Shown one piece after another: positions 1,904 through 29,759 of a stretch of 64,000 nt of DNA (position 1 is its first letter; every line of letters starts with the position of its first letter). The notes under the pieces are model-generated. The model did no database searches and had not been told where the DNA came from. It saw only the letters and a list, made by a program, of their open reading frames with translations. The stretch spans positions 434,001 to 498,000 of the forward strand of contig NZ_RAQI01000003.1 in assembly GCF_003610465.1 (NCBI RefSeq), given 5' to 3'. Source of the stretch: Xenorhabdus ehlersii (GTDB lineage Bacteria > Pseudomonadota > Gammaproteobacteria > Enterobacterales > Enterobacteriaceae). The translations under genes were made by a program, and so were the position numbers.

Positions 1904-2920
1904 ATGAAAAGTTTAGAAGATATAATTCTCTCTCCACCTACATTTCCACAGGCTCATGGAACCGATACCATTAACATACACGATCTGCGTATAATGAATA
2001 CTGAATATATATTAATGGAAGTGCCAAGATATGATGATGCTAAGACTGGAGATGAAATAGATGGATATCTTTATTTAAGTAATGATAATAGTGTGGTTAT
2101 AAAAAACAGACCATACTCTGTTAGCCCAAGTACATTACATACATCCCCATATACATTACTGTTTCCTGTGGATGAAATTTCTAAATATGGTGACTATCAA
2201 GCTAAGTATAAGATAATAAGTCATGGTAATGAACGCGAATCACCAACGGTGAATATAAAATTTATATTCTTTGATTCATCTAGATTATCTGATTATATTC
2301 CTAGTGTTCCAGAAGCTACAGGCAAACAAGGCACCTTGCTGACAAAAGATGATTATTATCGGTTAGATCAGTTGAAAGTTATTGTGCCAGTTTATGAGGG
2401 GATGGCTCCTGGGCATACTGTCAGGGTTTTATGGAAAGGACGTCGTAGTGATATTACATACGTATCACCTATTCAGACAGTGAATAATGTAATACCGATG
2501 ACATTCTATATTCCTCGTATGGAGTTTATTGACACTATTGGTGATACTGCTACGTTGCATTTTTCAGTAACAAGAACACCTGGTGATGTTGTTGAGTACT
2601 CAGGAGATTTACAGCTTGAGATTGAAGGGCAAACACTTAATTTACCTGCACCCAATCTTGAATACAATGATGATTCTATTCAAGTCATAATACGTTATCC
2701 TGATATGAGATTAAATCAAACAGTAAACATCCGGTTGGTAGGTCAGACAATGTGGCAAACTAATTATCAAATACTTGATAATGTAGAACGGATAGCAATA
2801 GATATCCCTTATGATTGGGCACAAGAAAATAGCGGAAAACTGGTTCTGATTGACTACGCTGTAGGTGATATATATGGAAGCAGAGATAGTTTCTCCCATA
2901 TATTAAGACGAGTCTTATAA
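1904..2920 (+). CDS. Leaderless protein with three Ig-like beta-sandwich modules, function unknown
   Basis: 338 residues, no signal peptide and no membrane segment. Three modules of roughly 110 residues open with related strands: VPRYDDAKTGD near residue 40, VPVYEGMAPGHTVRVLWKG near 159 and IRYPDMRLNQTVNIRLVG near 263. The pattern V-x-x-Y-(5 to 6)-D/H-x-V followed by hydrophobic alternation is typical of Ig-like modules in proteobacterial surface and adhesin-like proteins. The same opening strand recurs in the four paralogues at 8599-15153 (for example SSYPGGKDTDSLIFF), so this gene probably belongs to the same system. AAGGAG at 1892-1897, six bases before the ATG, supports the start. The product is probably structural or binding rather than enzymatic; no catalytic motif is visible. 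Codons are AT-biased (many ATA and AGA), unlike the backbone genes. Confidence 0.7.
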   Translation: MKSLEDIILSPPTFPQAHGTDTINIHDLRIMNTEYILMEVPRYDDAKTGDEIDGYLYLSNDNSVVIKNRPYSVSPSTLHTSPYTLLFPVDEISKYGDYQAKYKIISHGNERESPTVNIKFIFFDSSRLSDYIPSVPEATGKQGTLLTKDDYYRLDQLKVIVPVYEGMAPGHTVRVLWKGRRSDITYVSPIQTVNNVIPMTFYIPRMEFIDTIGDTATLHFSVTRTPGDVVEYSGDLQLEIEGQTLNLPAPNLEYNDDSIQVIIRYPDMRLNQTVNIRLVGQTMWQTNYQILDNVERIAIDIPYDWAQENSGKLVLIDYAVGDIYGSRDSFSHILRRVL

Positions 2921-3199: not shown

Positions 3200-6100
3200 A
3201 TGTTATCATATATTGGCAAAGGCACTGTCTTATTCTTTTTTCTTTATACATTAGTAGTACCCTATACGATAACGAGCACCTTTGCAGATAGTCATCTAAC
3301 ATCTGAAAAAATATACACGCAAAAAACAGATGACAAAGATAATATAAGTGTTCGAGTTAATGAATCAAGTAAAAAAAATTTGAATTCAAATATCCATAAA
3401 AAAAATAGAGTTAAAAAAAATGATCACACTGCTGATTCTAATACACCAGGTGTTATTGCTAAAAACATCCAGATGGCAGGCAATATCCTGTCATCTTCAC
3501 CTTCAGAACTGGCAGAGCAAGCCAAATCTTACGCGATAGGGCAGTTTAATAACACAGTATCTTCTGGCGCACAAAAATGGTTATCACAGTTTGGTACTGC
3601 CAGAATTAATTTTGGGCTGGATAAAAAGGGAACACTAAAAAACAATTCATTCGATCTGTTACTGCCGCTTTATGATAATAAAGCAGATTGGTTGTTCTTT
3701 TCCCAACTGGGTTATCGTAACAAAGATAGCCGGAATACCATGAATGTAGGATTAGGTGGGCGTTATTTTTCTCAAAACTGGATGTATGGACTGAATACTT
3801 TTTATGATTACGACCTGACGGGTAAAAATCAGCGTCTTGGTCTGGGCGGAGAAATAGGGGGAGACTACATTAAACTTTCCGCTAATACCTATTATCGTTT
3901 AACTAACTGGAAAGACTCACGGAATTTTGTCGGTTATTATGAACGCCCAGCCAACGGTTATGACATTAGTGGGGAGTTTTTCTTACCTGCTTACCCTCAT
4001 CTGGGTGCCAAACTGACCTATGAGCAGTATTTTGGCGATAACGTAACTTTATTCAATCGTGATACGAAACAGAAAAACCCTAACTTGGCTAAATTGGGGC
4101 TGACTTACACCCCGGTTCCGCTATTTACTCTGGGTATGGATTATAAACAAGGGGGAAGCGGGCACAGCGAAACACAGTTTTTGGCGAATTTTAACTATAA
4201 ACTGGGTGTTCCCCTGAGCGTGCAGTTATCGCCAGAAAATGTAGCGGCGGCGAGGACATTAGCGGGCAGCCGTTATGACCTGATAGAAAGAAATAATCAT
4301 ATTGTGCTTGAGCACCAGAAAAAGCCGATTGCGCAATTGTCGTTACCGGAAACCATCATTGGGTACAGTCAGGAGCAACACGATATTACAGTCAAGTTAT
4401 CTTCTAATGACTTTGTTAAGCAGATTCATTGGACAACGAACAAAGATTTTGAACAGCACGGCGGGAAACTTTCTTCCCGCGTTGGCCACACCATAAAAAT
4501 TACCCTGCCAAAATATTTATCCGGCGATAACCAAAATAACAATTATCCCATCTACGCTCTGGCTGAATTGGAAAATGATCAAAAATCAGCGCCTGTTGCG
4601 ATGCGCGTGATTGTCAGGCCCTTTATGCTGAAAAAACAGGAAGGGGCCAACCATACTCCAACAGGGCCATTGCCAGCAACAGGGGATAAAAAAGACGGAT
4701 ATACGTTCAACCCTGTGATTACCTTTGATACGGTCAATGGTGCCCCTATAAAAAATACCATTATTAACCACGTTCTGTGGATAACTGATCCTAAAATCAG
4801 CCCGGATACGGGGTTGCAGTGGATTGATTGGGAATCCTCAGACTCTGCGGCACTTGATGAAAATGGACATTTCAAACACAAGCCGATTTTAATTAGTACC
4901 CGACCCCATAAAGATGTCAAAGTGTATCTGCAACTGGATAGCCAGCCTCCACAATTAGTAGGTGAGGTTAGTTTTGATGAAAATCCGGCTAGTTTCCACA
5001 TTGATAATGTTAAGGTTTCACCGCCAGTACCGTCACGGATAGCCAATGATTCCCAGGCTTACACCTATAGCGCTGTGGTATTAGATAGTGATAACAATCC
5101 GGTGAGAAACCAAAAAATCGCCAATGTGAAGTGGAGCATTAAGCAGGGTAAAAATGATGTCAGTTCTAATCCAAATCTCACGTTTACGACCAGCGGGGAT
5201 ACAACAGGTACTCAGGGGGAATTAATTGCCTACCTGAAAAGTACGAAGGCAATACAAGATGTGCTGGTTTCACTTTCCATTGAAGGCCAAAATCCTGTTC
5301 CTGCACAACGCCCGGTTACCTTTACTGCGGATACGTCGAAGTATCGTATTAAAATGGTGAGTGTTGAGCAGCCAGGGACAGGCTCTTTGGTTGCGAACGG
5401 CAAGGATACTTATACCTATAAGGCTGCCATCATTGATGATCAGAATAATCTAGTGCCGAACCAGAAAATTACCGGCGTGACGTGGCGCGTTACGACAAAG
5501 GATGGTCATGATTTGAGTTCCGATCAGAATCTCAAGTTGACGAATGACGGGGATACCACGGGTAATCAGGGAGAATTAATTGCCTACCTGAAAAGTACGA
5601 AGGCAATACAAGATGTGCTGGTTTCACTTTCCATTGAAGGCCAAAATCCTGTTCCTGCACAACGCCCGGTTACCTTTACTGCGGATACGTCGAAGTATCG
5701 TATTAAAATGGTGAGTGTTGAGCAGCCAGGGACAGGCTCTTTGGTTGCGAACGGCAAGGATACTTATACCTATAAGGCTGCCATCATTGATGATCAGAAT
5801 AATCTAGTGCCGAACCAGAAAATTACCGGCGTGACGTGGCGCGTTACGACAAAGGATGGTCATGATTTGAGTTCCGATCAGAATCTCAAGTTGACGAATG
5901 ACGGGGATACCACGGGTAATCAGGGAGAATTAATTGCCTACCTGAAAAGTACGAAGGCAATACAAGATGTGCTGGTTTCACTTTCCATTGAAGGCCAAAA
6001 TCCTGTTCCTGCGCAACGCCCTGTAACCTTTACTGAGGATACTCAGGATTATCAGGTTAAGGGGGATATTCAGGTCAGTCCGTCAGAGGCGTTAACGGCA

Positions 6101-8134
6101 GATGGTGCCCAAAAATATACCTATACGGCGGCTATCGTAGGTATTGATGGAAAACCTGTTCAAGGAGGAGAAATCATTCATAATGCGACGTGGAAGATAG
6201 AGCATCCAGCTAACCCTAACGCTTATGGACTCATACTCGATCAATCAGATATGACAATAGATGGCAAGGGGCAATTAACGGCAACCTTAACCAGTATTAA
6301 AGCAGTCAATGGTGTTATCGTTTCACTCACGGTGGGAAAACAAAAGCCGATTCAGGCAAAGCCGCCAGTAGATTTCAAACCGGAACAAGTGTCAATAGCA
6401 GTGACACCACCAAGCCCAATATTGGTGGGTAAAAATTATACCCTGACCGTTAACGTTAAAGATGCGACGGGTAATAATTCGGAGCCTAATAAAAAAGTTA
6501 ACTGGACCCTAAAAACGCCCAATCAGACAGGGGTAACACTGAATCCAACAATCAGTACAACTCAGGGGGATGGGAGTGCTTCCACAACATTGACCAGTAC
6601 GCAGGCTCAAACAGTGACGGTAGAGGCTTCTGTCGAAGGCGTTGAAACAGTGAAGTCAGTGGGTGTGGAATTCAAATGGCCAACCATTCAGAAACCAACA
6701 GTTGCCGAAAAAACGGGAACAGTTCCTGCGGATGGAGACAAAAATCCGCAACATGCTTATCACTATACTGCGCATGTGTTTGGTGCTGATGGCACAACAC
6801 CTTATACAGAGCAAGATATTAAGTTTAAGTGGCGGTTAAAATCTGAGAAGGGTGGTGCTCCGAAAAATACCGAGTTATCAGAACCAGGGGAAGTTACCGT
6901 TCAACCTGATGGTACATTAAAAGTTCAACTGCGGAGCAGTCAGAAAAACCCGGTAGTGACAGGTGCAATTGTGTGTCTTGTTGCTGTTAATGAAAAGTCT
7001 GCTGAGATCCCTGCAACAGAACAATGTGCTGAACCTGTGGATTTTGAAGCGGAAAATTTAAAGATAGTCAGCCTTGATGTTACGTTTAATCCTAATCAGC
7101 CCATAAAGGGGGGGAGTGGTGGACATTATACCTATACGGCGAAAGTGGTTAAGGCTGACGGTACAGCGCTATCTGATGGATATAAGGTAGGTGCTAAATG
7201 GGTTCTGGATCCAGCCCCTGAAACCTATAAAGGTCAGGATGAATGGAAAATTGAAAGTGACAATATAGTAAGCAATGGTCAAATTACGGCAACCCTAAGT
7301 AGCCAGGTTGGTATTGGCGATATTAATAATGGTCAAGTCACTGACGGCCTGACTGTAAAATTAGAAGTACCGGCAGGAAGGGAGAAAACGACTTTCAGTG
7401 CAGCAAATCAACAAGTTGCTTTTGACGTAGTATCGCAACCCGCTGGAGTTGCTGTCTATACCAAAGAAGCTGATAATGTAACAATTAAGAAGAGTAAAAT
7501 ATTTGAAGATCAACTCAGACCTAGTAATGTATTTGGAAATATGTATGCACAATTGTATGACTTGTCGATAAAGGAAAAGATTCTGGATAAAGGAGGAGAA
7601 ATAATTTCTACCGAAGGCTTTGGTAGTGGTATTAATGACATTGGGTCCATAGATCTGACTACAGGAGAGATAACTCTGGGCACTTTTCATAAGGCTAAGG
7701 TGGATACATCTATAACGATTAAAAGAACTAATAAGGCTAAATATGCTTATAATTATTCTTTTTTTATTAAAAAATACATACAGCCTGACTCTAGGCACCC
7801 AGAAGTTATGAAACAGGATAGTGAGCAAGGGGATATTTCATGTCAGGATCCGAGGTTACCAAATTCTCGTAATATTAATGAACGTGATGTAGGTATCAAA
7901 GAAACTGATCCTTACTCCTTACAAAATGAATTTCCAGACAGCTATTCTTGGGGGCTTCTTGATTATGTTACATCACCACCTCCAGTGACGCCAAACATCC
8001 TTGGGAAATATTCGAATAACAGTCTGAACAATAGTGGGAATTTTATCTATAATACCCAAGAAAACAAACAGGTGGTTAGTGCTAATGATTCTAAGGGTTA
8101 TGTGCTTTGTGTTGGGAGTTATTTTCCTTATTAG
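3200..8134 (+). CDS. Inverse autotransporter adhesin, intimin/invasin family, with multiple Big_1-type Ig domains
   Basis: 1644 residues from the ATG at 3200. That start is preferred over TTG 3194 because ATAAGG lies nine bases before it. A signal peptide ends near TFADS. The inverse-autotransporter beta-barrel spans about 103-355 (ELAEQAKSYAIGQFN, then alternating beta-strands such as GLGGRYFSQNWMYGLNTFYDYD and FLPAYPHLGAKLTYEQYFG). A linker and a first Ig-like domain (about 387-472) follow, then a chain of Big_1-like modules with recurrent TYTYKAAIIDDQNN and VTWRV signatures. One module has a Cys pair. The C-terminal tip (about 1430-1644) is not Ig-like by eye and has Cys1548 and Cys1637, spaced like the disulfide of the invasin/intimin C-type-lectin-like domain. 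Type Ve secretion predicts that the Ig stalk and tip are displayed outside. The likely role is host or cell adhesion; the receptor is unknown. An exact internal duplication lies at 5219-6012. Confidence 0.88.
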   Translation: MLSYIGKGTVLFFFLYTLVVPYTITSTFADSHLTSEKIYTQKTDDKDNISVRVNESSKKNLNSNIHKKNRVKKNDHTADSNTPGVIAKNIQMAGNILSSSPSELAEQAKSYAIGQFNNTVSSGAQKWLSQFGTARINFGLDKKGTLKNNSFDLLLPLYDNKADWLFFSQLGYRNKDSRNTMNVGLGGRYFSQNWMYGLNTFYDYDLTGKNQRLGLGGEIGGDYIKLSANTYYRLTNWKDSRNFVGYYERPANGYDISGEFFLPAYPHLGAKLTYEQYFGDNVTLFNRDTKQKNPNLAKLGLTYTPVPLFTLGMDYKQGGSGHSETQFLANFNYKLGVPLSVQLSPENVAAARTLAGSRYDLIERNNHIVLEHQKKPIAQLSLPETIIGYSQEQHDITVKLSSNDFVKQIHWTTNKDFEQHGGKLSSRVGHTIKITLPKYLSGDNQNNNYPIYALAELENDQKSAPVAMRVIVRPFMLKKQEGANHTPTGPLPATGDKKDGYTFNPVITFDTVNGAPIKNTIINHVLWITDPKISPDTGLQWIDWESSDSAALDENGHFKHKPILISTRPHKDVKVYLQLDSQPPQLVGEVSFDENPASFHIDNVKVSPPVPSRIANDSQAYTYSAVVLDSDNNPVRNQKIANVKWSIKQGKNDVSSNPNLTFTTSGDTTGTQGELIAYLKSTKAIQDVLVSLSIEGQNPVPAQRPVTFTADTSKYRIKMVSVEQPGTGSLVANGKDTYTYKAAIIDDQNNLVPNQKITGVTWRVTTKDGHDLSSDQNLKLTNDGDTTGNQGELIAYLKSTKAIQDVLVSLSIEGQNPVPAQRPVTFTADTSKYRIKMVSVEQPGTGSLVANGKDTYTYKAAIIDDQNNLVPNQKITGVTWRVTTKDGHDLSSDQNLKLTNDGDTTGNQGELIAYLKSTKAIQDVLVSLSIEGQNPVPAQRPVTFTEDTQDYQVKGDIQVSPSEALTADGAQKYTYTAAIVGIDGKPVQGGEIIHNATWKIEHPANPNAYGLILDQSDMTIDGKGQLTATLTSIKAVNGVIVSLTVGKQKPIQAKPPVDFKPEQVSIAVTPPSPILVGKNYTLTVNVKDATGNNSEPNKKVNWTLKTPNQTGVTLNPTISTTQGDGSASTTLTSTQAQTVTVEASVEGVETVKSVGVEFKWPTIQKPTVAEKTGTVPADGDKNPQHAYHYTAHVFGADGTTPYTEQDIKFKWRLKSEKGGAPKNTELSEPGEVTVQPDGTLKVQLRSSQKNPVVTGAIVCLVAVNEKSAEIPATEQCAEPVDFEAENLKIVSLDVTFNPNQPIKGGSGGHYTYTAKVVKADGTALSDGYKVGAKWVLDPAPETYKGQDEWKIESDNIVSNGQITATLSSQVGIGDINNGQVTDGLTVKLEVPAGREKTTFSAANQQVAFDVVSQPAGVAVYTKEADNVTIKKSKIFEDQLRPSNVFGNMYAQLYDLSIKEKILDKGGEIISTEGFGSGINDIGSIDLTTGEITLGTFHKAKVDTSITIKRTNKAKYAYNYSFFIKKYIQPDSRHPEVMKQDSEQGDISCQDPRLPNSRNINERDVGIKETDPYSLQNEFPDSYSWGLLDYVTSPPPVTPNILGKYSNNSLNNSGNFIYNTQENKQVVSANDSKGYVLCVGSYFPY
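5219..6012 (+). repeat. Exact 354-bp in-frame tandem duplication inside the invasin gene
   Basis: Bases 5219-5572 and 5573-5926 are identical unit repeats of 354 bp (118 codons), and the first 86 bases of a third unit (5927-6012) are also identical. The first difference is at 6013 (G for A at 5305). Thus 440 consecutive bases are the same at offset 354. Each unit encodes one Big_1-like module. Absence of even synonymous changes implies very recent duplication or ongoing gene conversion. Confidence 0.95.
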
Positions 8135-8598: not shown

Positions 8599-10350
8599 AT
8601 GAAAATTGAAGAAGACCTTGTAGTGAAAACTCTTCCTCAGAATGATTATACTGTTACTGCAACAATACCTGACCAATCTGATATTATTGTGGGGCAAACT
8701 AGTTATATATCAATAATTGCATCAGGAGTACCAAACAAAATAAGAAACATTAAAAATGTAACAATAGAACTTGATCGGGATATAGTTAATTTAGTTAAAT
8801 GGAAGACTGAGAGATCATGGTTGTCAGCAGGTAATGTTGGGTATGTAATGATCCGTTTGACGGTTGATAATAATCTAAATGAACAGCAGCATAAAGAAAT
8901 TATTTATACTGTTAATCTTTGGGCTGATGAGAAAGGTACTCAAGCAGTATCGAATTACACACCGCTGAAATTCACATATAATGTAAAGAAAATTAATCCT
9001 AAAGCTGTTATAGTATTAAATACTGATAATGAATATATCCAACCTCCGACAGGAGATAATCCGGTAGGAACAGGAAATGAATATATTACATATTCTGGTT
9101 CTCTTGTTGATAATATAGGTGGTGTTCTTAAGAACACCCAAGTTGTAGTCGCATCTTCATTATTGGATCAAATATATTCTAACAATGCGGATAATGCTCT
9201 TGTTAATATAGGAACAGTGCCAGATTCTGGTAGCAGCAGTATACAGATACCAACGACTAGAGATAATGATATAGACTATTTTGTTATTAATAGTGATGGC
9301 AGTGGTAATATAAAATTTAGAGTGTACCCCAAAAAAAACATATCAGCTAGGATCGATTTCAAGACGGGAATATTAGGCGTAACATCTATTAATTATGCTG
9401 CATCTGTATATATCTTTAGTAACACGAATATGAGTGATGATCCTTTTGGCCCATTATCACCAAATATATATAATGTAGATCAACTTGGAAAACTTCAAAA
9501 AATCCCAGGATCCAATGCTATGCAGGTCGGAATTGCTCCGTATGTTGGACATCAAAAGACGGATGCTTTGATATTCTTTATTAAAGGGTATGAAAAGAAC
9601 GATGAACCAATTCAACTAAAACCTATATATAAACTTGAAAATATAGATAGTCTGGATGGAAACCCTTTTAATTTTACGTATGACCAGCTACCACTTAATA
9701 AGCTTATGCAGCTTTATTACCTGATAGCTCCTGCTAGCCAGGATTCGCTCTATTCTATGACATCAAATTTTATGTATGTTGGTGAGCTATCCGATGGTGA
9801 TAATAATGGTGATGGTGGGATTTATACACCCGTTGAGGTATACTCCAGTTATTCACCATCACCGCTTGACCTCAAAAATACACATGATAATGATCGTATG
9901 TATGACAATCGTCTGGTCACTCTAGATACGATAAATCAATATGTAAAAGAAGGCAGTACTATAACAAAAACGGATCCAATTGGTTTGTATGTCGTGATAA
10001 AAATAGCTAAAAATATGACTGAGCAGGTGAAGGGACTTCCTCCGTTAAATTCTATTTGCACTTTAACAATTAATATCGATTCTGCCACAAGACAGGAGAA
10101 TAAATCCTATCCATCAGTCAAACTGACAGATAATACTAATTACTATCAAGTTGTGAAGATTCCATATTGTGATTTAACTCGGGCTCGGGGATGGGAAGAT
10201 GGTATATTGGCAAAACTATCGTTTGTCTACTCAATCACATACGAAGGAGCAACAAGGAAAAGCAAAGAATGGAAAGCTACAATAGGCACGGCAAATACGG
10301 GTTATGATATAAATGATGATGGTTGCCCCTGCAACGATAAGAGCAATTAA
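8599..10350 (+). CDS. Leaderless multidomain Ig-like protein, array paralogue 1, function unknown
   Basis: 583 residues, no signal peptide or membrane helix. By comparison with its three neighbours it has four parts. An N-terminal beta domain (about 15-130) contains DQSDIIVGQTSYISI. A Big_1-like domain (about 135-275) contains EYIQPPTGDNPVGTG and SDGSGNIKFRVYP. A third module starts near 311 with IAPYVGHQKTDALIFF and includes FTYDQLPLNK. A C-terminal domain ends in KEWKATIG and a Cys-containing tail. Two DxNxDG calcium-loop-like motifs occur (in DGDNNGDGG and YDINDDGC). GAGGTG at 8588-8593 supports the start. The best match within the window is the next gene, with long blocks of conserved sequence. 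Codon use is AT-biased. It is not a recognised enzyme; a binding or structural role is inferred from the fold pattern. Confidence 0.72.
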   Translation: MKIEEDLVVKTLPQNDYTVTATIPDQSDIIVGQTSYISIIASGVPNKIRNIKNVTIELDRDIVNLVKWKTERSWLSAGNVGYVMIRLTVDNNLNEQQHKEIIYTVNLWADEKGTQAVSNYTPLKFTYNVKKINPKAVIVLNTDNEYIQPPTGDNPVGTGNEYITYSGSLVDNIGGVLKNTQVVVASSLLDQIYSNNADNALVNIGTVPDSGSSSIQIPTTRDNDIDYFVINSDGSGNIKFRVYPKKNISARIDFKTGILGVTSINYAASVYIFSNTNMSDDPFGPLSPNIYNVDQLGKLQKIPGSNAMQVGIAPYVGHQKTDALIFFIKGYEKNDEPIQLKPIYKLENIDSLDGNPFNFTYDQLPLNKLMQLYYLIAPASQDSLYSMTSNFMYVGELSDGDNNGDGGIYTPVEVYSSYSPSPLDLKNTHDNDRMYDNRLVTLDTINQYVKEGSTITKTDPIGLYVVIKIAKNMTEQVKGLPPLNSICTLTINIDSATRQENKSYPSVKLTDNTNYYQVVKIPYCDLTRARGWEDGILAKLSFVYSITYEGATRKSKEWKATIGTANTGYDINDDGCPCNDKSN

Positions 10351-10469
10351 AAAGTTAATTATTCCAATATATACTGATCAAAAATATTAATTTAATAGAG
10401 ATATCTACATTATCCATTCATATAGATGATGTAGATATTATCTTTATTTAATATATAGGATGGATAATA
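10351..10469. other. Spacer with hairpin between paralogues 1 and 2
   Basis: The 119-bp gap contains the inverted repeat ATATCTACAT (10401-10410) and ATGTAGATAT (10429-10438) with an 18-base loop. It could be an intercistronic terminator or an RNA stability element. AGGA at 10457-10460 is the ribosome site of paralogue 2. Confidence 0.45.
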
Positions 10470-12173
10470 ATGAGTATAATAAATAATACAGAATTAATAG
10501 ATAATACATGTGCATTTGGTGAACTCTGTGTATCTATACCGAACAGAGCTGATGTTATTATTGGACAAACTTGTTACTTGACCGTATCACTTACTGCTGA
10601 TTCAAATTTAATTTCTAGTATTGATAGTATTTCAATAGAGGCCGACAAAAATTATCTAACTGTAGAGAATAGGAATAATTGGGCAGTATCAGAAAATAAA
10701 AATTTTGGCAGTGCTGTAGTTTTATTGCATATAAATAATAACCTGCCATCAGATACATTAATTAAATATACAGTTCATGCAATGTCAAGTACTGGTTATA
10801 TTAATGGAATTAAATCATTAGAAATAGAGTATACGACTAAGAAAGTGGATCCGACAAGCTTTATTGCATTAACTGCTAATAATGAATACATTGAACCACC
10901 GACAAAAGATAACCCTGTTGGCACTGGTAGTTCATATGTTACATATTCTGGAATATTGTTGGATTATAATAATAATCCACTAAGAAATATACAAGTTTTG
11001 GTATCATCCGAACATCCGGGTAAAATTTTTTCTCATGATCAAAGTAAGACACTTGTGAATATAGGTACAGAACCAGAAGATGGAAAACTGTCCCAAAAAA
11101 TCATGACACACAGCCAGAGTAGTTTTGACTTTTTTGCTATTAATAGTGATACTCATGGAAATATAAAATTTCGCGTTTATCCAGTACGGGATACTTCTGT
11201 CAGGATTGACTTTGATACTCAAATATTGAATGTAACTTCTGTTAATTACTCAGCATCTATATATGTTTTTAATGCTATACGTAGTTCATCATTTGGTCCA
11301 ACTGCCCCAAAAATATCAGGAATACAAAATGGTAAGGTTGAAAAAATACCAGGCGCTAAAGGAATAGAGGTGCATGTATCTTCTTATCCTGGTGGTAAAG
11401 ATACAGATTCTTTAATATTTTTTATGCAAGGATTTAATCAAAAAGATAAACCAATTCAACTTAAACCTATATATAGGCTTGATAACATAACCAGTCTGGA
11501 TACAATTCCTTTGTACTTTACATATGACCAGTTACCACTCAATAAACCTATGAAGTTTTATTATTTGGTTGCTCCTGAAAATCAAGAATACAGCTATTCT
11601 ATGACCGAAATGTTCACATATATTGGTGAACAAAATGACTCATCGAACGAAGATGTCTACGATAAAGTCAAAGTATATACCAGCCGTGCAACACTTCCCA
11701 TTGATGTATATAGTGAAGAAAATGAAACTTTTGAATGGCATGGCATCATCCTGAGTATGATAAATAGTAATAAAAAACCTGGGAAAAATGCTAAGGGTGT
11801 GACAGGGTTATACGTGGTGATTATGGGAACTAATGATCAAAATAATAAAAATCTACCACAACTCGGTAGCAAGGGATATTTGAATGTCTATATCAAAACA
11901 CCAACATCCAGAAATACTCATAAAAGTTATCAGTTTTCGTTATCTACTGCTGATTCGGGAAAACAAACAGGCCATGTTATAGTTAATATCCCATACTGTG
12001 ACATTAACCGAGCTGGGCCTTCATTCTCCAAAGGGTTAGGGACACTTTCTTTTGATTACTATATTGAAAATAGTGATGGCTCTAAAACGTATAGCAAAAA
12101 ATGGACTGCCAAAATTAATACCGTATTACCAAACCAGGCTCATGATAATAATGATGGATGTGATCCTTTATAA
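10470..12173 (+). CDS. Leaderless multidomain Ig-like protein, array paralogue 2, function unknown
   Basis: 567 residues with the same four-part layout as the preceding gene. The N-terminal domain has NRADVIIGQTCYLTV. The Big_1-like domain has NEYIEPPTKDNPVGTG and SDTHGNIKFRVYP. The third module begins near 303 with VSSYPGGKDTDSLIFF and continues PIQLKPIYRLDNI and FTYDQLPLNKPMKFYYLVAP. The C-terminal domain has VNIPYCDINRAG and ends KKWTAKINT plus an Asp-rich tail with one Cys. Blocks of ten or more residues are shared with paralogue 1, showing relatively recent duplication. There is no signal peptide. AGGA at 10457-10460 precedes the ATG. The function is unknown. Confidence 0.72.
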   Translation: MSIINNTELIDNTCAFGELCVSIPNRADVIIGQTCYLTVSLTADSNLISSIDSISIEADKNYLTVENRNNWAVSENKNFGSAVVLLHINNNLPSDTLIKYTVHAMSSTGYINGIKSLEIEYTTKKVDPTSFIALTANNEYIEPPTKDNPVGTGSSYVTYSGILLDYNNNPLRNIQVLVSSEHPGKIFSHDQSKTLVNIGTEPEDGKLSQKIMTHSQSSFDFFAINSDTHGNIKFRVYPVRDTSVRIDFDTQILNVTSVNYSASIYVFNAIRSSSFGPTAPKISGIQNGKVEKIPGAKGIEVHVSSYPGGKDTDSLIFFMQGFNQKDKPIQLKPIYRLDNITSLDTIPLYFTYDQLPLNKPMKFYYLVAPENQEYSYSMTEMFTYIGEQNDSSNEDVYDKVKVYTSRATLPIDVYSEENETFEWHGIILSMINSNKKPGKNAKGVTGLYVVIMGTNDQNNKNLPQLGSKGYLNVYIKTPTSRNTHKSYQFSLSTADSGKQTGHVIVNIPYCDINRAGPSFSKGLGTLSFDYYIENSDGSKTYSKKWTAKINTVLPNQAHDNNDGCDPL

Positions 12174-12230
12174 AAAAATGTCAACTATTGTATTTTGATA
12201 TAATAAAAATACTTGAGATAAGGAAACGAT

Positions 12231-13496
12231 ATGAAAAATAATCTATCAATCGATGAAAGATCCATATCAATATATTTTGAAAAAGAATTCCTGCAAATAT
12301 TGGATTATGATAGCACTCCACCTAATGGTGATTGTATTAAGGCAATTGCATTAGTCAGAAATAAAGAAGGAAAACCATTGCCGAATGTTTCCGTTGATAT
12401 CCTTGAGAAAGAAAATTCTTATTTTGGACTGGTTAGTATTTATCATTCCGATAAAGAAAAACTTGTCGAAATTAAAAACATTTCTTCTGGGCAGAAATAT
12501 TTTTCTATCACTTCAGATAAAAATGGAGAGTTGATTTTTTATATTTATCCTAAAAAATCAACATCAGTGATATTTCAAGTTGATTCTATGGTATTGGATA
12601 TAACAGATCGTATATCTTCAAAAAACAAAGTGTATATTGTAGATAACAATAAAGAAGACTTGAATCTTCCTCCACTTGTCATAAGCGAGGATAATAGCAG
12701 TTTGTTGGTAGATCCTAATTCGAATGTCTTTAACGTTTTAATCCAAAACTATCCTGGTGCTAAGAGAAATGACACAATACTATTTTTTATTAACAAGCAA
12801 TATGCGCAAAAATTGTTTTTTGTTCAAGAGGTTAATAAATTAGGCAATGATAGCTATGTGATATTCCCTTATAATATGTTTAAGGTGAATGAACTTGCTA
12901 ACTTTTCTTATACTGTTGTGGACAAGTTGAGAACAGTACGATCTTCATATCCACAAGGCATAATATATCCTGGAGGAGGGTATAATCAGCCAATTGATAA
13001 TTTAACAAGAATATATGATAGTTGTATAGTTTACAATAGTTATGGTTATCATGATGATAAAAACATTATTTATGATACAATTCATGAAAAAGATGTAGAT
13101 AATAAATGTAATAATTCACATCATGAAGCGTTATTCGTTAAGATAATTGGAACAAGTGATTATAAAGATAAAACAAAAGTTCCACTTGGTGCTGAGGTGA
13201 CATTAAACTTATATGTTAATAATTATCCTAATACCATTTACCAATCTAAAGTAAAGATAATGCCAACTCAACCAGATAGTGATAATAGCAATACAGCAAC
13301 ATTATTGTTTGGTATTCCTTTTAGTTATGTTAGCCATATAGGAAATGGAGATATTTATCTTGATTTTCAAGTTAATTATTATGGAGATATTTCTTACGGC
13401 AAGATTTGGCAAGCCAATGTTTATACAGTACGGCCGGGAGGAGAAGTTACCGGGGATGCTTGCCCTGACGGTAAAACTTGGTCTGGTATATGCTAA
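12231..13496 (+). CDS. Leaderless Ig-like protein, array paralogue 3, lacking the N-terminal domain
   Basis: 421 residues. It aligns with the neighbours only from their second domain on. Residues about 25-145 correspond to the Big_1-like domain (NKEGKPLPNVSVDI, SDKNGELIFYIYPKKSTS). The third module starts near 171 with IQNYPGAKRNDTILFF. The C-terminal domain has LLFGIPFSYV and ends KIWQANVYTVRPGG followed by a tail with two Cys. The VIIGQ-type first domain present in paralogues 1, 2 and 4 is absent. There is no frameshifted remnant between 12174 and 12230, so the short form looks genuine. AAGGA precedes the start, and the gene lies 57 bases after paralogue 2. The function is unknown. Confidence 0.7.
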   Translation: MKNNLSIDERSISIYFEKEFLQILDYDSTPPNGDCIKAIALVRNKEGKPLPNVSVDILEKENSYFGLVSIYHSDKEKLVEIKNISSGQKYFSITSDKNGELIFYIYPKKSTSVIFQVDSMVLDITDRISSKNKVYIVDNNKEDLNLPPLVISEDNSSLLVDPNSNVFNVLIQNYPGAKRNDTILFFINKQYAQKLFFVQEVNKLGNDSYVIFPYNMFKVNELANFSYTVVDKLRTVRSSYPQGIIYPGGGYNQPIDNLTRIYDSCIVYNSYGYHDDKNIIYDTIHEKDVDNKCNNSHHEALFVKIIGTSDYKDKTKVPLGAEVTLNLYVNNYPNTIYQSKVKIMPTQPDSDNSNTATLLFGIPFSYVSHIGNGDIYLDFQVNYYGDISYGKIWQANVYTVRPGGEVTGDACPDGKTWSGIC

Positions 13497-13530
13497 CTTC
13501 ATCAATAAAGAATTATAAAAGAGGTGAAAT

Positions 13531-15153
13531 ATGTTGGAAAGTGATAAAGATCTGATTTTGTCAGATGATGATTTAAATTTATCTGTTAAAAATGGTGCTG
13601 ACATTATTATTGGTCAAAAATTTTACCTTGACATAGAAATACCAAAAGGAAAAATGCCTCAATCCCTTAATATAGGAGTAAAGGATTCTAAGGGTTTTGA
13701 AAGTATAAAGATAATTAAAACAATGAATACCCAACAAGATAGTAAATCATATAATGTGGTTATTTCATGTGCTGTTAAAGGAAGCGATTCAATAACAGCG
13801 GGAGAAGAAATACATTTTATACTCACAGGTATTGATAAGGTAATAAAATATTATGCAAGGGATTTGGTTAAAAGTTCAATTCAATTGAAGAAAAATAAAA
13901 ATATTTGTGCAATACCAAATAACAACGATATAGATGATAATGAGGAACATTATATAAGTTATGATACGACATTATTTGATACTAATGGTCAATTACTGAA
14001 AAATACTCCCGTCAATATTTACTCTGAGATTAATGAGGATATAGAAAGAAACATCATAATTACTTCTGAACCTGATGGAGTAGGTCAAAAACACCAAATT
14101 ATCAAACCAACGAAATATGAGGGTAAAACTCAAATAATTATTAATAGTGATAAGGATGGAAAAGTAAATTTCCGTGTTTATCCAGTTATGGATACACCTG
14201 CTATTATGGATTTAATCAGTCAAGTTGAAGGAGTTGCTGAATATCATTCTGGTAGCATATATATGATTTCTGTTGTCCCACCCAGTAATGAGGACTCACT
14301 TAATCCACCAGATATCCCTGAACTAGAAGGAGATTCATTAGAAGGCGATGGACGTCAATTTTTTGAAGCAGAGATTGATTCCTATCCTAATGCATCCAGG
14401 ACAGATAATATTCTATTTTTCAACAAAAAAAAGAAAGATGGTTCTTTTGATCCAGAAGGATTAATATTTCCAGTCCAAAAAATTTCCGATGTTTTGGGGG
14501 ATATGGATTCAGAAGATTATAATTATACATTTTTGATACGAAGAGATGTTTTCCCATATGGGAAAGACTCAATGCTTTATTATATAATAGCACCAGATTT
14601 TGGTAATAGCATGTATTCAGATGTTAGAGATGTTACATATATAGGAGGTGAACTCACCACGCCTAATGATAGTGTCAAAAGAACATATAATATGCCTATG
14701 ATTTTCTCAAGTTTTGCTGATATAAAGCAAGATGCTAAACTTGAACACTCTGATGAAGAAAAACCAAACCATGAGGATATTACTCAAAGAGATGTATCTA
14801 ATTATGCTGTAAGTGGGTATCAATTATATGTAAAAATTTTATGTACTAATGATGAAGATGATCTCTCTTATCCTCTCTGGGGTAAAGAAATATATTTAAG
14901 AATGTATGTTGAATCAGCGAATCAGAATTTTAATAAGATATTTCCAGTTGTTGCTCCTCATACTCCAGATAAACCAGGAGGAAAATTATCGACGGTCATT
15001 GTTAAAATTGATTCACCAGAACTTAATGATGTGAAAGGATATGTGACTGGAGGGGCAGGAAATATCTACTTTGAATATTATATCATTGATTCAGTTACTC
15101 ATGAAAAAACATATAGTAATTATTGGGAAAATGAAATCATGACAACTGATTAA
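13531..15153 (+). CDS. Leaderless multidomain Ig-like protein, array paralogue 4, function unknown
   Basis: 540 residues, the most diverged complete member. The first domain has NGADIIIGQKFYLDI. The Big_1-like domain has EEHYISYDTTLFDTNGQLLKN and SDKDGKVNFRVYPVMDTPA. The third module starts near 282 with IDSYPNASRTDNILFF. The C-terminal domain ends NYWENEIMTTD, without the Cys tail of the other three. There is no signal peptide or membrane helix. GAGGTG just before the ATG supports the start; the gene follows paralogue 3 after 34 bases, so 12231-15153 is almost certainly one transcript. A terminator follows at 15171. The function is unknown. Confidence 0.7.
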   Translation: MLESDKDLILSDDDLNLSVKNGADIIIGQKFYLDIEIPKGKMPQSLNIGVKDSKGFESIKIIKTMNTQQDSKSYNVVISCAVKGSDSITAGEEIHFILTGIDKVIKYYARDLVKSSIQLKKNKNICAIPNNNDIDDNEEHYISYDTTLFDTNGQLLKNTPVNIYSEINEDIERNIIITSEPDGVGQKHQIIKPTKYEGKTQIIINSDKDGKVNFRVYPVMDTPAIMDLISQVEGVAEYHSGSIYMISVVPPSNEDSLNPPDIPELEGDSLEGDGRQFFEAEIDSYPNASRTDNILFFNKKKKDGSFDPEGLIFPVQKISDVLGDMDSEDYNYTFLIRRDVFPYGKDSMLYYIIAPDFGNSMYSDVRDVTYIGGELTTPNDSVKRTYNMPMIFSSFADIKQDAKLEHSDEEKPNHEDITQRDVSNYAVSGYQLYVKILCTNDEDDLSYPLWGKEIYLRMYVESANQNFNKIFPVVAPHTPDKPGGKLSTVIVKIDSPELNDVKGYVTGGAGNIYFEYYIIDSVTHEKTYSNYWENEIMTTD

Positions 15154-24710: not shown

Positions 24711-25856
24711 ATGGATAGTTTTTTGCCATTTTCTCGTCCTGCAATTGGCAGCGAAGAGATAGAAGCGATAGAGAAAGTTTTACACTCAGGTTGGATTACT
24801 ACAGGGCCACAAAACCATCAGTTAGAGCAAGATTTTTCTCTCATGTTTGGATGCAAACATGCTATTGCTCTATGTTCCGCGACTGCGGGAATGCATTTGG
24901 CTTTGTTGGCTCTAGGCATAGGCCCAGGTGATGAAGTCATTACTCCTTCCCAAACTTGGGTTTCTACTATCAATATGATTTGTTTGTTGGGTGCTGAGCC
25001 TGTCATGGTGGATGTTGACCGTGATACATTGATGGTCAGCGCAGAAACAATCAAAAAAGCGATCACTCCCAAAACCAAAGCAATTATTCCCGTCCATTAT
25101 GCAGGAGCGCCTTGTGACCTTGACGCTCTGCGCGCTATAGCTCAAAAAGCTAAAATTCCCCTGATTGAAGATGCAGCCCATGCTGTCGGCACCCGTTATA
25201 AAAATGAATGGGTCGGAGAGCAGGGTACTGCAATCTTTTCTTTTCACGCGATTAAAAACATGACCTGCGCCGAAGGTGGCATGTTCGTTACAGATGATGA
25301 TGAACTTGCCCAACGGATCCGTTGTTTAAAATTTCATGGCTTAGCGGTGGATGCTTTTGATAGACAAATTCAGGGCAGGAAACCTCAAGCGGAAGTAATT
25401 GAGCCGGGTTTTAAATACAACCTATCGGATATTCATGCGGCGATGGCAGTTGTGCAACTAGGCAAACTGGCATCGATGAATGCACGTCGTCGGCAATTGG
25501 TGGCTCGCTATTCTGCTGCTCTTATTAATTCACCGTTGCAAATGCTGAGAGCTCCCGAATATGCGCATTTGCATTCCCATCATCTTTTCATGGTACGAGT
25601 TGACAAAAGTATCTGTGGTATTGACCGCGATACTTTTATGGCTCGACTAAAGAATAGAAATATTGGCACGGGTTTACATTTCAGAGCCGCGCATACACAA
25701 AAATATTATCGTGAGCGTTATCCACAACTCTCCCTGCCTGTATCTGAGTGGAATTCGTCAACACTTTGTTCATTACCTCTTTTTCCAGATATGAGCAATG
25801 ACGATGTAGATCGTGTCGTGAATGTGATAACTGAAATTCTTTCGGAGCATAAGTAA
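24711..25856 (+). CDS. arnB: UDP-4-amino-4-deoxy-L-arabinose aminotransferase
   Basis: 381 residues, DegT/DnrJ/EryC1 family of PLP enzymes. The PLP lysine lies in [15 protein letters not shown], and the cofactor-phosphate region is [28 protein letters not shown]. ArnB transaminates UDP-L-Ara4O to UDP-L-Ara4N in the cytoplasm using glutamate. It is the first gene of arnBCADTEF, the pathway that modifies lipid A phosphates and gives resistance to polymyxin and host antimicrobial peptides. The stop is followed directly by the GTG start of arnC. Confidence 0.96.
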
Positions 25857-26834
25857 GTGACATTTGAGAAGATCAAAAAAGTTTCAGTCGTTATTCCTGT
25901 TTACAACGAGGAAGAAAGTTTACCCCAGTTACTGGAAAGAACTCTTACAGCGTGCCAAAAATTAAAACAGAAATACGAATTAATCTTGGTCGATGATGGC
26001 AGCTATGATAGTTCTGCCGAGATCTTAACTCAGGCGGCTGAATCTCCAGAAAATCATGTGATTGCGATTTTGCTTAACCGTAATTACGGGCAACATTCAG
26101 CAATTATGGCCGGTTTCCATCAAGCTGACGGTGATCTGGTTATTACACTTGATGCTGATTTGCAAAATCCGCCAGAAGAAATTCCTCGTTTAGTTAAAAC
26201 GGCGGAAGAGGGATATGACGTTGTGGGTACACGTCGTATCCATCGGCAGGATTCTTGGTTCCGTAAAATCGCTTCTAAAATAATCAATGCAATGATAACC
26301 AAGGCGACGGGGCGTTCAATGGGGGATTATGGTTGCATGTTGCGCGCCTATCGACGTCACATTATACACGCGATGCTTCAATGTCATGAACGCAGTACAT
26401 TTATTCCCATCCTTGCCAATACCTTTGCACGCAGAACAATAGAAATTGACGTAGCCCATGCAGAGCGTGAGTTTGGGGATTCTAAGTACAGTTTTATGAA
26501 ACTGATCAATTTGATGTATGACCTTCTGACGTGCTTAACAACTGCACCATTGCGGTTACTAAGTGTCGCGGGAAGTATCATTGCCATAACAGGTTTCTTG
26601 TTGGCGGTGTTATTGATTGTTCTACGCCTTATATTTGGCTCAATGTGGGCTGCTGAAGGGGTGTTTACCCTGTTTGCTATTCTTTTCATGTTCATTGGAG
26701 CACAGTTCGTTGCCATGGGACTATTGGGTGAATACATTGGTCGAATATATAACGATGTTCGTGCTCGCCCGCGCTATTTTATTCAAAAAGTGGTCGGAGT
26801 TAAGAAGACTAACGACAATCAGGAAGAAAGCTAA
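25857..26834 (+). CDS. arnC: Undecaprenyl-phosphate Ara4FN transferase
   Basis: 325 residues from a GTG start directly after the arnB stop. It is a GT2 glycosyltransferase: [19 protein letters not shown], the nucleotide site [10 protein letters not shown] and [15 protein letters not shown] as the metal-binding segment. Two C-terminal membrane helices follow (about 235-260 and 270-295), as in E. coli ArnC. It transfers formyl-Ara4N from UDP to undecaprenyl phosphate. It overlaps arnA by one base. Confidence 0.96.
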
Positions 26835-28819
26835 TGAAAGCAGTTATTTTTGCCTATCACGATATTGGTTGTGTCGGACTTAATGCATTAGTCAAAGCTG
26901 GTTTTGAAGTTCAGGCTGTATTCACTCACACTGATGATCCAAATGAAAATCACTTTTTCTCTTCTGTTGCACGTATCGGCGCTGATTTGGGTTTACCCGT
27001 GTTTGCGCCAGAAAATGTGAATCACCCGCTTTGGGTTGAACGCATTCGTGAGATGAAACCAGATGTTATTTTCTCTTTTTACTATCGCAACATGCTTGGC
27101 CAAGAAATTCTGTCACTGGCTGAAAAAGGCTCATTTAACCTTCATGGCTCCTTGTTGCCGAAATATCGTGGCCGTGCTCCAGTTAACTGGGCAGTACTCC
27201 ATGGAGAAACCGAAACCGGTGTAACATTACATAAAATGCTGGAGAAGCCGGATGCGGGAGATATTATCGCGCAACAGGTTGTACAGATTGATGAAAATGA
27301 TACTTCGCTGATAATACATGGAAAAATACGCGAAGCGACAGTTGAATTATTGGATCGCATTCTGCCTCAAATAAAATCAGGTCATTATCCATCAATTCCA
27401 CAGGATGAAAGCCAGGCAACTTATTTTGGCCGCCGCACCGCTGAAGATGGTGAAATAGTATGGAATAAGTCTGCCAAAGAGATTAATAACTTAGTTAGGG
27501 CAGTGACAGAACCATACCCAGGGGCATTTACTTTTCTCGGTGAACGTAAGATTACGATTTGGCGTTCACGGCCACTTAATCAGTCCCACGGAAAACGCCC
27601 GGGAATCGTACTCTCGACTGATCCATTTGTGATTGCTTGTGGTGATGGTGCGCTGGAAATTATTAGCGGCCAAGGGGAGTCAGGGCTTTATGTTCAAGGT
27701 AATCGATTAGCTCTTGAGATGGGCATTGTCGCAGGGGTTCATGTTGGTCCTAAAGCAACAGCCCAAGTCAGTCGTCGTAAGCGTGTTCTTATTTTGGGCG
27801 TCAATGGATTCATTGGTAACCATCTGACTGAACGATTGTTGAGTGATGGCAATTATGACATTTACGGGATGGATATTGGTTCTTCTGCGATTGAACGATT
27901 TATTGGTAATCCTCGCTTTCACTTTATTGAAGGTGATATCAGCATTCATACTGAATGGATTGAATATCACATCAAAAAATGTGATGTCATTCTGCCATTG
28001 GTGGCAATTGCAACTCCGATTGAATATACCCGTAATCCTTTGCGAGTCTTTGAACTGGATTTTGAAGAGAACCTTAAAATTGTTCGTTATTGTGTTAAAT
28101 ACAATAAACGGATTATTTTCCCATCAACATCCGAAGTTTATGGTATGTGTGATGATAAAGAATTTGATGAAGATACTTCGCGTCTGATTGTTGGACCTAT
28201 TAATAAACAGCGTTGGATCTATTCAGTTTCAAAACAATTACTTGATCGAGTTATTTGGGCATATGGTACACAAGAGGGCTTGAAATTTACCTTATTTCGT
28301 CCATTTAACTGGATGGGGCCAAGGCTGGATAACCTAAATTCAGCGCGTATTGGTAGTTCAAGGGCCATTACCCAATTGATTTTGAACCTGGTGGAAGGTT
28401 CTCCAATTAAACTGGTGGATGGAGGAGAGCAAAAACGTTGTTTTACGGATATCCATGATGGTATTGAAGCATTGTTCAGGATCATCGAAAACCGGGATGG
28501 GCTATGCGATAGCCAAATAATCAACATCGGTAATCCAACAAATGAAGCGAGCATTCGCCAACTGGCCGAAATGTTATTAGATAGCTTTGAGCAACATGAG
28601 TTGCGAGGGCACTTTCCCCCATTTGCTGGATTCAAGAAGATCGAAAGCAGCAGTTATTATGGGCAAGGCTATCAGGATGTTGCACACCGTAAACCCAGTA
28701 TTAAAAATGCAGAGTGTCTGTTAGGTTGGAAACCCACTATTGATATGAAGCAAACCATTGATGAAACATTGGATTTCTTTCTGCGTGGAGCAGTTGAAGA
28801 ATCTAAAGGGAAAAACTAA
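26834..28819 (+). CDS. arnA: Bifunctional UDP-Ara4N formyltransferase / UDP-glucuronate decarboxylase
   Basis: 661 residues, fusing two enzymes as in E. coli. The N-terminal formyltransferase (about 1-305) has [25 protein letters not shown], containing the formate-site His, and DAGDII. The C-terminal SDR decarboxylase (about 315-661) has the NAD fold [14 protein letters not shown] and the active-site segment [10 protein letters not shown] with [10 protein letters not shown]. It makes UDP-Ara4O from UDP-glucuronate, and later N-formylates UDP-Ara4N. It lies within the tightly packed arn operon. Confidence 0.97.
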
Positions 28820-28860
28820 AAAGCTAATTGGAAAACGAGGAAGAGAGTGGGAATAACGTA

Positions 28861-29754
28861 ATGAAAAAAGTTGGTTTGAGAATTGATGTGGACACTTATC
28901 AAGGCACTAAGGAAGGTGTACCACGGTTGCTTGAAGTTTTACACAAGCACCATATTCAAGCCAGCTTTTTTTTCAGTGTTGGTCCGGACAATATGGGGCG
29001 TCATTTATGGCGCCTGTTGCGTCCGAAGTTTCTCTGGAAGATGCTGAGATCAAATGCGGTGTCTCTTTATGGCCTGGATATTTTATTGGCTGGTACAGCC
29101 TGGCCGGGAAAAAAAATCGCAAAAGATTTAGGGCATTTGATGAAGCAAACAATGGATGCAGGCCATGAAGTGGGTTTACATGCATGGGATCATCAAGGTT
29201 GGCAGGCAAAAGTAGGGTGTTGGTCGGAGAAGGAATTAACAGAACAAGTGAAGTTAGGTGTTGATGCTTTGGAAAAGGCAACAGGAAAAGCCGTTACATG
29301 CTCAGCCGTTGCGGGTTGGCGAGCTGATGAGCGTGTGCTGGCGGTTAAACAACATTTTGGTTTTGATTACAACAGTGATTGCCGCGGAACACATCCATTC
29401 AGGCCACTCTTGCCCGATGGACAAGTGGGAACTGTACAAATTCCTGTCACATTACCTACCTATGATGAAGTTGTTGGAACACAAGTCAGCGATGCAGATT
29501 TTAATCACTTTATCCTTGAAGCGATTAAAAATGATCATGGGGTTTCTGTTTATACGATCCATACCGAAGTCGAAGGTATGGCGAAATCTTCACAATTTGA
29601 GACATTGCTGGACATGCTTCATCAACAAGATATTCAGTTCTGTAAATTAAGCCATTTTTTACCAGAAAATAGGGATACGCTCCCTGTTGGGAAAATTGTT
29701 CGTTCGGATTTTCCTGGTCGTGAAGGCTGGTTAGGTTGCCAACAAGAGGTATAA
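28861..29754 (+). CDS. arnD: 4-deoxy-4-formamido-L-arabinose-phosphoundecaprenol deformylase
   Basis: 297 residues, NodB-type deacetylase. The start at 28861 ([20 protein letters not shown]) matches the E. coli N-terminus; the in-frame start at 28828 adds eleven non-conserved residues. Catalytic and metal segments are [22 protein letters not shown] and GWRADERVL. It removes the formyl group from undecaprenyl-P-Ara4FN at the inner membrane before flipping. It lies 41 bases after arnA and just before arnT. Confidence 0.95.
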
Positions 29755-29759
29755 CACAG

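What the first reader, a model, noticed from the sequence alone, without database searches (positions are those of the whole stretch)
8599..15153. Four-gene array of leaderless, multidomain Ig-like paralogues next to an inverse autotransporter
Seen: four consecutive same-strand genes (583, 567, 421 and 540 residues) share a Big_1-like domain with SDxxGxxxFRVYP and a module opening xxYPxxxxxDxIxFF; three also share an N-terminal domain with the ADVIIGQ motif. None has a signal peptide, membrane helix or catalytic motif. Known: Big_1 domains are normally found in exported adhesins such as the neighbouring invasin. Inference: either these proteins act inside the cell, or they leave by a non-Sec route or lysis, or are loaded onto another secretion system. 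As soluble Ig-like partners of a surface invasin they could be a new adhesin/effector set of an insect-associated bacterium.
Basis: partly seen in the sequence, partly recalled or inferred. Interest (0 to 1): 0.78.

Follow-up and report, generated by a model that had tools for sequence, protein, structure and literature searches.

The report
Leaderless Ig-protein arrays beside an invasin
Beside a surface adhesin gene this insect-pathogenic bacterium carries a row of related proteins that are built like adhesins but lack any export tag; similar pairings recur in other gut-type bacteria and look like an undescribed relative of Salmonella's Zir system.

The parts
1904..2920 (+).
   Evidence: ORF; AlphaFold2 mean pLDDT 83.9, pTM 0.56; 18 relatives, all those named being Xenorhabdus; same place before the IAT in L015, L016, L046, L048, L055, L058
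3200..8134 (+). inverse autotransporter (IAT); ATG at 3200 gives a hydrophobic N-terminus; Big_1/Invasin_D3 passenger and a C-terminal tip of its own type
   Evidence: PF11924 E 1.9e-98, Big_1 E 1.3e-32; sequence; hydropathy 2.48; tip
8599..10350 (+). gene 1, 583 aa, leaderless; four beta-sandwich domains at about 16-130, 132-274, 282-396, 410-565
   Evidence: (mean pLDDT 87.4, pTM 0.68)
10470..12173 (+). gene 2, 567 aa, leaderless paralogue, 42% identical to gene 1
   Evidence: sub-threshold Big_1
12231..13496 (+). gene 3, 421 aa, leaderless paralogue without the N-terminal domain; its group spans 8 loci in the tree (support 1.00)
13531..15153 (+). gene 4, 540 aa, leaderless paralogue; its group spans 9 loci in the tree (support 1.00)

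Best explanation
The locus (ORF0, IAT, genes 1-4) is a multi-part adhesin of the general Zir kind: an inverse autotransporter in the outer membrane and several separately made Ig/FnIII-like subunits that act with it outside the cell. Shown: the genes are real, conserved, under purifying selection, leaderless by hydropathy, predicted to be chains of beta-sandwich domains, and repeatedly placed beside an IAT. Inferred: the soluble subunits are stored in the cytosol and leave without Sec, most likely by lysis of some cells (the Pantoea cluster encloses a lysis set), then bind the tips of IATs on siblings or a host surface; the paralogue array supplies variable binding subunits. No step of export or binding has been tested.
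Against: 15 of the 25 clusters have no IAT within 12 kb, and one of the 10 counted is 11.6 kb from an IAT that lacks the array-type tip. The G156 locus has lost the IAT and keeps full-length members. The genome with the chromosome size of X. nematophila has only partial or interrupted members, so the system is dispensable. Array proteins and IAT passengers share no significant sequence module (best E 0.005 in a 34-protein set). No homologue of the Pantoea holin, amidase, lysozyme or Rz was found in the fetched Xenorhabdus and Photorhabdus stretches. The chimaera and the block divergence each rest on one genome.
Confidence: 0.4

Rival explanations
1. The proteins work inside the cell (for example as a storage, scaffold or inclusion protein), and the IAT is only a frequent neighbour in the same variable islands.
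For: No signal peptide; 15 of 25 clusters without an IAT within 12 kb; G156 keeps the genes without the IAT.
Against: Linkage far above random placement and seen in a second and a third genus and on plasmids; the fold is that of extracellular adhesin domains, though a shared fold shows no function; fast, mosaic evolution.
Confidence: 0.22
2. A true Zir-type pathway: the subunits cross the inner membrane by an unrecognised Sec-independent route or internal signal and then pass the outer membrane with the help of the IAT, as ZirS does with ZirT.
For: Same gene layout as zirTS and the sinH/iatB loci; conserved adjacency.
Against: ZirS has a Sec signal (PMC2270342) and two of the three Ig-type genes read beside an IAT in the Y. 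enterocolitica ZirU locus have hydrophobic N-termini; these do not. These IATs carry long passengers of their own.
Confidence: 0.15
3. The array is a reservoir of domain cassettes that recombine into the IAT passenger and each other, like silent cassettes in antigenic variation.
For: Chimaera of a member with an IAT-passenger C-half; ORF0-domain fusions in L056 and L061 and, by eye, P0005 and P0015; block divergence in G001; fragments in several loci.
Against: Purifying selection on whole genes, start codons with upstream purine-rich stretches, and little sequence similarity between members and passengers, so ordinary gene conversion into the passenger has little to work on.
Confidence: 0.12
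4. The leaderless proteins derive from, or still serve, a phage particle or phage-like lysis unit.
For: Holin, amidase, phage lysozyme and Rz in the Pantoea cluster; a glycosyltransferase-9-like and an MptE-like gene between IAT and leaderless genes in G118 and Pantoea.
Against: No match for ORF0 or the Pantoea ORF0-type protein in 50,697 phage records; no capsid or tail gene among the 34 listed features around the Pantoea cluster (that gene table is incomplete); only sub-threshold PHROG matches.
Confidence: 0.06

Closest known systems
ZirTSU of Salmonella (ZirT outer-membrane IAT-like protein; ZirS, ZirU exoproteins)
   Same: An IAT-type barrel protein with neighbouring genes for separate Ig-type proteins lacking a barrel (PMC2270342 passages; PMC6714894 passage).
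   Different: ZirS carries a Sec signal and is secreted in a ZirT-dependent way; the proteins here are leaderless, form paralogue arrays, and show no significant sequence match to the ZirU-annotated proteins of Y. enterocolitica (best E 0.035 in a four-protein set).
SinH-SinI (Salmonella) and IatB with its downstream gene (E. coli)
   Same: IAT followed by a gene for a protein without a barrel (PMC6714894 passage).
   Different: One downstream gene rather than arrays; whether SinI or the E. coli protein has a signal peptide was not examined.
Invasin/intimin passenger domains (Big_1, Invasin_D3)
   Different: No barrel and no signal peptide; below Pfam cut-offs.
Type 10 secretion (holin/endolysin/spanin) release of leaderless proteins such as Yersinia entomophaga Tc toxin
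   Same: Leaderless cargo; lysis genes around the Pantoea cluster. PMC10847048: title, abstract start and a term search only.
   Different: No such genes found in the fetched Xenorhabdus or Photorhabdus stretches.

Membership tests
ZirTSU-type system | Outer-membrane inverse-autotransporter barrel with Ig-type passenger | tested here: met
   PF11924 E 1.9e-98, Big_1 and Invasin_D3
ZirTSU-type system | Adjacent genes for Ig-type proteins without a barrel | tested here: met
   Genes 1-4 and ORF0
ZirTSU-type system | Sec signal peptide on the partner proteins | tested here: not met
   Hydropathy 0.53-1.60 against 2.48 for the IAT; 5 of 126 relatives against 32 of 34 IATs above 2.0. SignalP not available
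ZirTSU-type system | Secretion dependent on the IAT | not testable with these tools
   Needs a deletion and supernatant analysis
ZirTSU-type system | Sequence relationship to ZirU | tested here: not met
   Best profile E 0.035 against four proteins of a Y. enterocolitica ZirU locus; no ZirU model hit in NCBIfam. ZirS itself was not compared
Big_1 (PF02369) | Score above Pfam gathering threshold | tested here: not met
   17.6 bits against 34.9 for gene 2, no match for genes 1, 3, 4
Big_1 / intimin-type Ig fold | Fold of the Big domain | tested here: met
Inverse autotransporter | IAT beta-barrel in genes 1-4 | tested here: not met
   No PF11924 match
Type 10 secretion cargo | Leaderless protein encoded with holin, endolysin and spanin | tested here: inconclusive
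   Leaderless in the window, lysis genes only in the Pantoea cluster; the rest of the Xenorhabdus genomes was not searched for lysis sets

The most novel reading that the evidence does not exclude
A dispersed adhesin built from two cells: the IAT is displayed by living cells, while its array of leaderless Ig/FnIII subunits is a shared good released by lysing siblings, which caps or cross-links IAT tips and is diversified by paralogue replacement together with the tip. It would be a Sec-independent, Zir-like multi-part adhesin system spread over several enterobacterial genera and plasmids.
Probability: 0.2. Interest if true: 0.85.

Novelty: new variant of a known kind. Interest (0 to 1): 0.58.

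Why it matters
Ig-type adhesin domains are normally thought of as surface proteins exported through Sec. A genus-wide, multi-copy family of such proteins without signal peptides, repeatedly encoded beside an IAT, poses a clear question: how do adhesin domains get out, or what do they do inside? If they assemble on the IAT outside, adhesins of the invasin family would be multi-subunit and variable in a way not seen in invasin or intimin. My ten full-text searches listed no paper that I recognised as describing the array; most subscription papers are not in that library.

Tried and rejected
Genus restriction: early searches suggested Xenorhabdus only (15 of 15 protein hits, of which 13 carry a Xenorhabdus name and 2 are the window's own, 2 of 149 genomes with the narrow profile A2). 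A broader profile overturned it. Class-wide searches of 369 genomes gave no convincing match outside Xenorhabdus; G461, G223 and G114 matches (E 0.004 to 0.008) were set aside as chance or general Ig similarity.

Pseudomonas origin: I recalled similar YPGM-type repeats in Pseudomonas proteins; the class searches did not show it, though few Pseudomonas species can have been in the sample. Left open.

IAT-specific tip: a profile of array-linked tips matches 32 of 34 linked IATs by construction, and 6 of 15 IATs I had fetched as unlinked, so the tip is commoner beside arrays but not confined to them.

Conserved N-terminal docking domain: within-array identity is highest in the first 30 residues in 4 of 5 Photorhabdus arrays, but not in the Xenorhabdus arrays tested; not used. 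Promoter and terminator scans were near chance (88 against 75.3, sd 7.7; 9 against 8.8). E. coli genomes: no match covering the S. bongori genes beyond short stretches (none over 3% in the rows listed) and none for the Enterobacter ones. Whole-chain PDB matches were multi-domain with TM 0.11-0.21 for gene 1 and not used.

Photorhabdus papers: a P. asymbiotica 'invasin' operon, PAU_02531-37, is up at 37 degrees, and an Ig-like protein, pPAU_0028, is in a secretome (PMC4683029 passages). I could not show that either belongs here: no listed pPAU1 gene is annotated Ig-like (incomplete table) and three protein searches of plasmids did not hit that plasmid. Not used as evidence.

Rows dropped: I left out the 4 weakest of 97 family matches and the matches on contig C2 of G161, and 2 of 47 IAT rows (fragments in G157); two of the dropped matches are extra singletons without a nearby IAT, and the C2 matches form two more clusters on a contig without a listed IAT, so the fuller count is 10 of 29 rather than 10 of 25.

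Full report
What is there. The window holds a lytic transglycosylase-like gene (691-1371), then ORF0 (1904-2920, 338 aa), the inverse autotransporter (3200-8134), genes 1-4 (8599-15153) and thrS. Genes 1-4 are paralogues (42, 22, 26% to gene 1), gene 3 lacking the N-terminal domain. Pfam, NCBIfam and PHROGs give only sub-threshold matches, and PDB sequence searches nothing useful. Their GC is 30.5-34.9% against 43.4% for thrS and 40.6% for the window. The assembly is not held; the closest named relatives are Xenorhabdus sp. BG5 and X. griffiniae, and ORF0 is 95% identical to a X. taiwanensis protein.

No leader. Among 126 relatives of at least 380 aa from the fetched Xenorhabdus stretches, 5 exceed an N-terminal hydropathy of 2.0, against 32 of 34 IATs in the same window. 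In the probable Photorhabdus arrays 3 of 41 exceed 2.0, with start codons not refined. This is a hydropathy scan and not SignalP.

Distribution. A 17-sequence profile matches in 30 of 30 Xenorhabdus genomes, 3-21 matches each. The profile of 75 sequences (A3) matches in 10 of 12 genomes of genus g138, which I take to be Photorhabdus from its size and LuxC matches (LuxC also occurs in 6 other genomes of the 149 in that search). A mixed profile (A7) over 149 genomes of the family matches 5, of which 4 are Xenorhabdus, g138 and G118 and one, G114, is a weak match inside long Ig-type frames. ORF0-type proteins also occur on six Y. enterocolitica plasmids, and on Pantoea, Enterobacter and S. bongori plasmids.

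Linkage to IATs. In seven genomes, five of them single- or two-contig among others, 10 of 25 clusters counted lie within 12 kb of an IAT; random placement gives 1.17 on average and at most 6 in 20,000 trials (with the rows I dropped, 10 of 29). Many fetched stretches were chosen after seeing IAT positions, so their high rate of linkage is not an independent count. The Photorhabdus stretches were chosen without that knowledge: 6 of 10 show the IAT beta-domain upstream, on the same strand, and 4 of 10 only the C-terminal part with the same tip. In L123 three other ORFs lie between. G118 has IAT, two glycosyltransferase-like genes, then two leaderless proteins. S. bongori RM1 has IAT, a 542-aa array-type protein (23% to a Photorhabdus member over 420 aa) and an ORF0-type protein; Enterobacter has a divergent IAT; Pantoea has the IAT after the lysis genes. 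The fetched 19-kb Y. enterocolitica stretch shows no IAT.

Evolution. Between the window, BG5 and griffiniae, dN/dS is 0.15-0.59 for genes 1-4, 0.25-0.29 or so for ORF0 and 0.03-0.07 for thrS, so the genes are kept but change fast. Against BG5, genome G001 is 99, 98 and 100% identical in genes 3, 4 and thrS but 28, 31 and 56% in the IAT tip, gene 1 and gene 2, where it is closer to G157 (61, 56, 78%) and G150 (49, 59, 85%). This looks like one block exchange; genes 1 and 2 and the tip are adjacent, so co-exchange alone does not prove co-adaptation. In the tree gene 3 and gene 4 form position-specific groups over 8 and 9 loci (support 1.00 each). Fusions: ORF0 domain to an array protein in L056 (696 aa) and L061 (809 aa), and in P0005 and P0015 by eye; and one 972-aa frame in L051 whose residues 1-392 are 86% identical to the neighbouring leaderless gene and 390-968 are 52% identical to the window's IAT passenger C-half. 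An assembly error cannot be excluded for that single case. G156 has lost the IAT at the thrS-type locus. G168, whose chromosome length I recall as that of X. nematophila ATCC 19061, has 6 matches, all partial or interrupted.

Comparison with what is known. In Salmonella, ZirT is an outer-membrane IAT-like protein and ZirS an exoprotein with a Sec signal, secreted in a ZirT-dependent way (PMC2270342, passages); ZirU, SinH-SinI and IatB are drawn into the same theme (PMC6714894, one passage). A 2012 structural paper calling it a multiprotein immunoglobulin adhesion system is recalled and was seen only as search terms in other papers' text. Layout and domains here agree; the signal peptide and sequence do not. 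So it works like a Zir-type system at best; it is not shown to be one. Chaston et al. note Xenorhabdus-specific invasins and an X. nematophila supernatant proteome in a supplement (PMC3220699, passages), which I could not open.

Mechanism. Leaderless proteins of this group of bacteria can leave by lysis; the Y. entomophaga Tc toxin does so through a type 10 system (PMC10847048, title, abstract start and term search). In Pantoea the leaderless Ig genes stand between an amidase and a lysozyme/Rz pair, with a holin upstream and the IAT downstream, on one strand. No relative of those lysis proteins was found in the fetched Xenorhabdus or Photorhabdus stretches. I therefore put lysis-type release first at modest odds and keep the intracellular, Zir-type and cassette-reservoir readings open.

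Noticed in passing
L059:17962-19896: A 644-aa leaderless protein joins an ORF0-like N-terminal domain to RCC1-type repeats; neighbours such as L050:5063-6655 join a Big_1-like domain to an unassigned C-terminal half.
   Followed up: partly
L147 (Pantoea ananatis plasmid NZ_CP054911.1), 1018-15591: Holin, amidase, a lipoxygenase gene, phage lysozyme and Rz enclose the leaderless Ig genes next to an IAT.
   Followed up: partly
L048:249-1100, L055:989-1840: A 283-aa protein with a hydrophobic N-terminus and no Pfam family precedes ORF0 in some Xenorhabdus loci.
   Followed up: no
L049, L051, L052, L060, L062-L066, L072: Many arrays share a second chromosomal slot beside a 586-607-aa gene, identified as bipA in L060 by Pfam; 469-aa neighbours may be glnA (recalled length, not tested).
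   Followed up: partly
L109:4681-7829, L110:5921-7429: Divergent 501-503-aa members away from any IAT, which the mixed Photorhabdus-Xenorhabdus profile scores highly.
   Followed up: partly
window 24711-31421: Five consecutive ORFs (381, 325, 661, 308, 561 aa) whose lengths suggest an arn-type lipid A operon; recalled, not tested.
   Followed up: no
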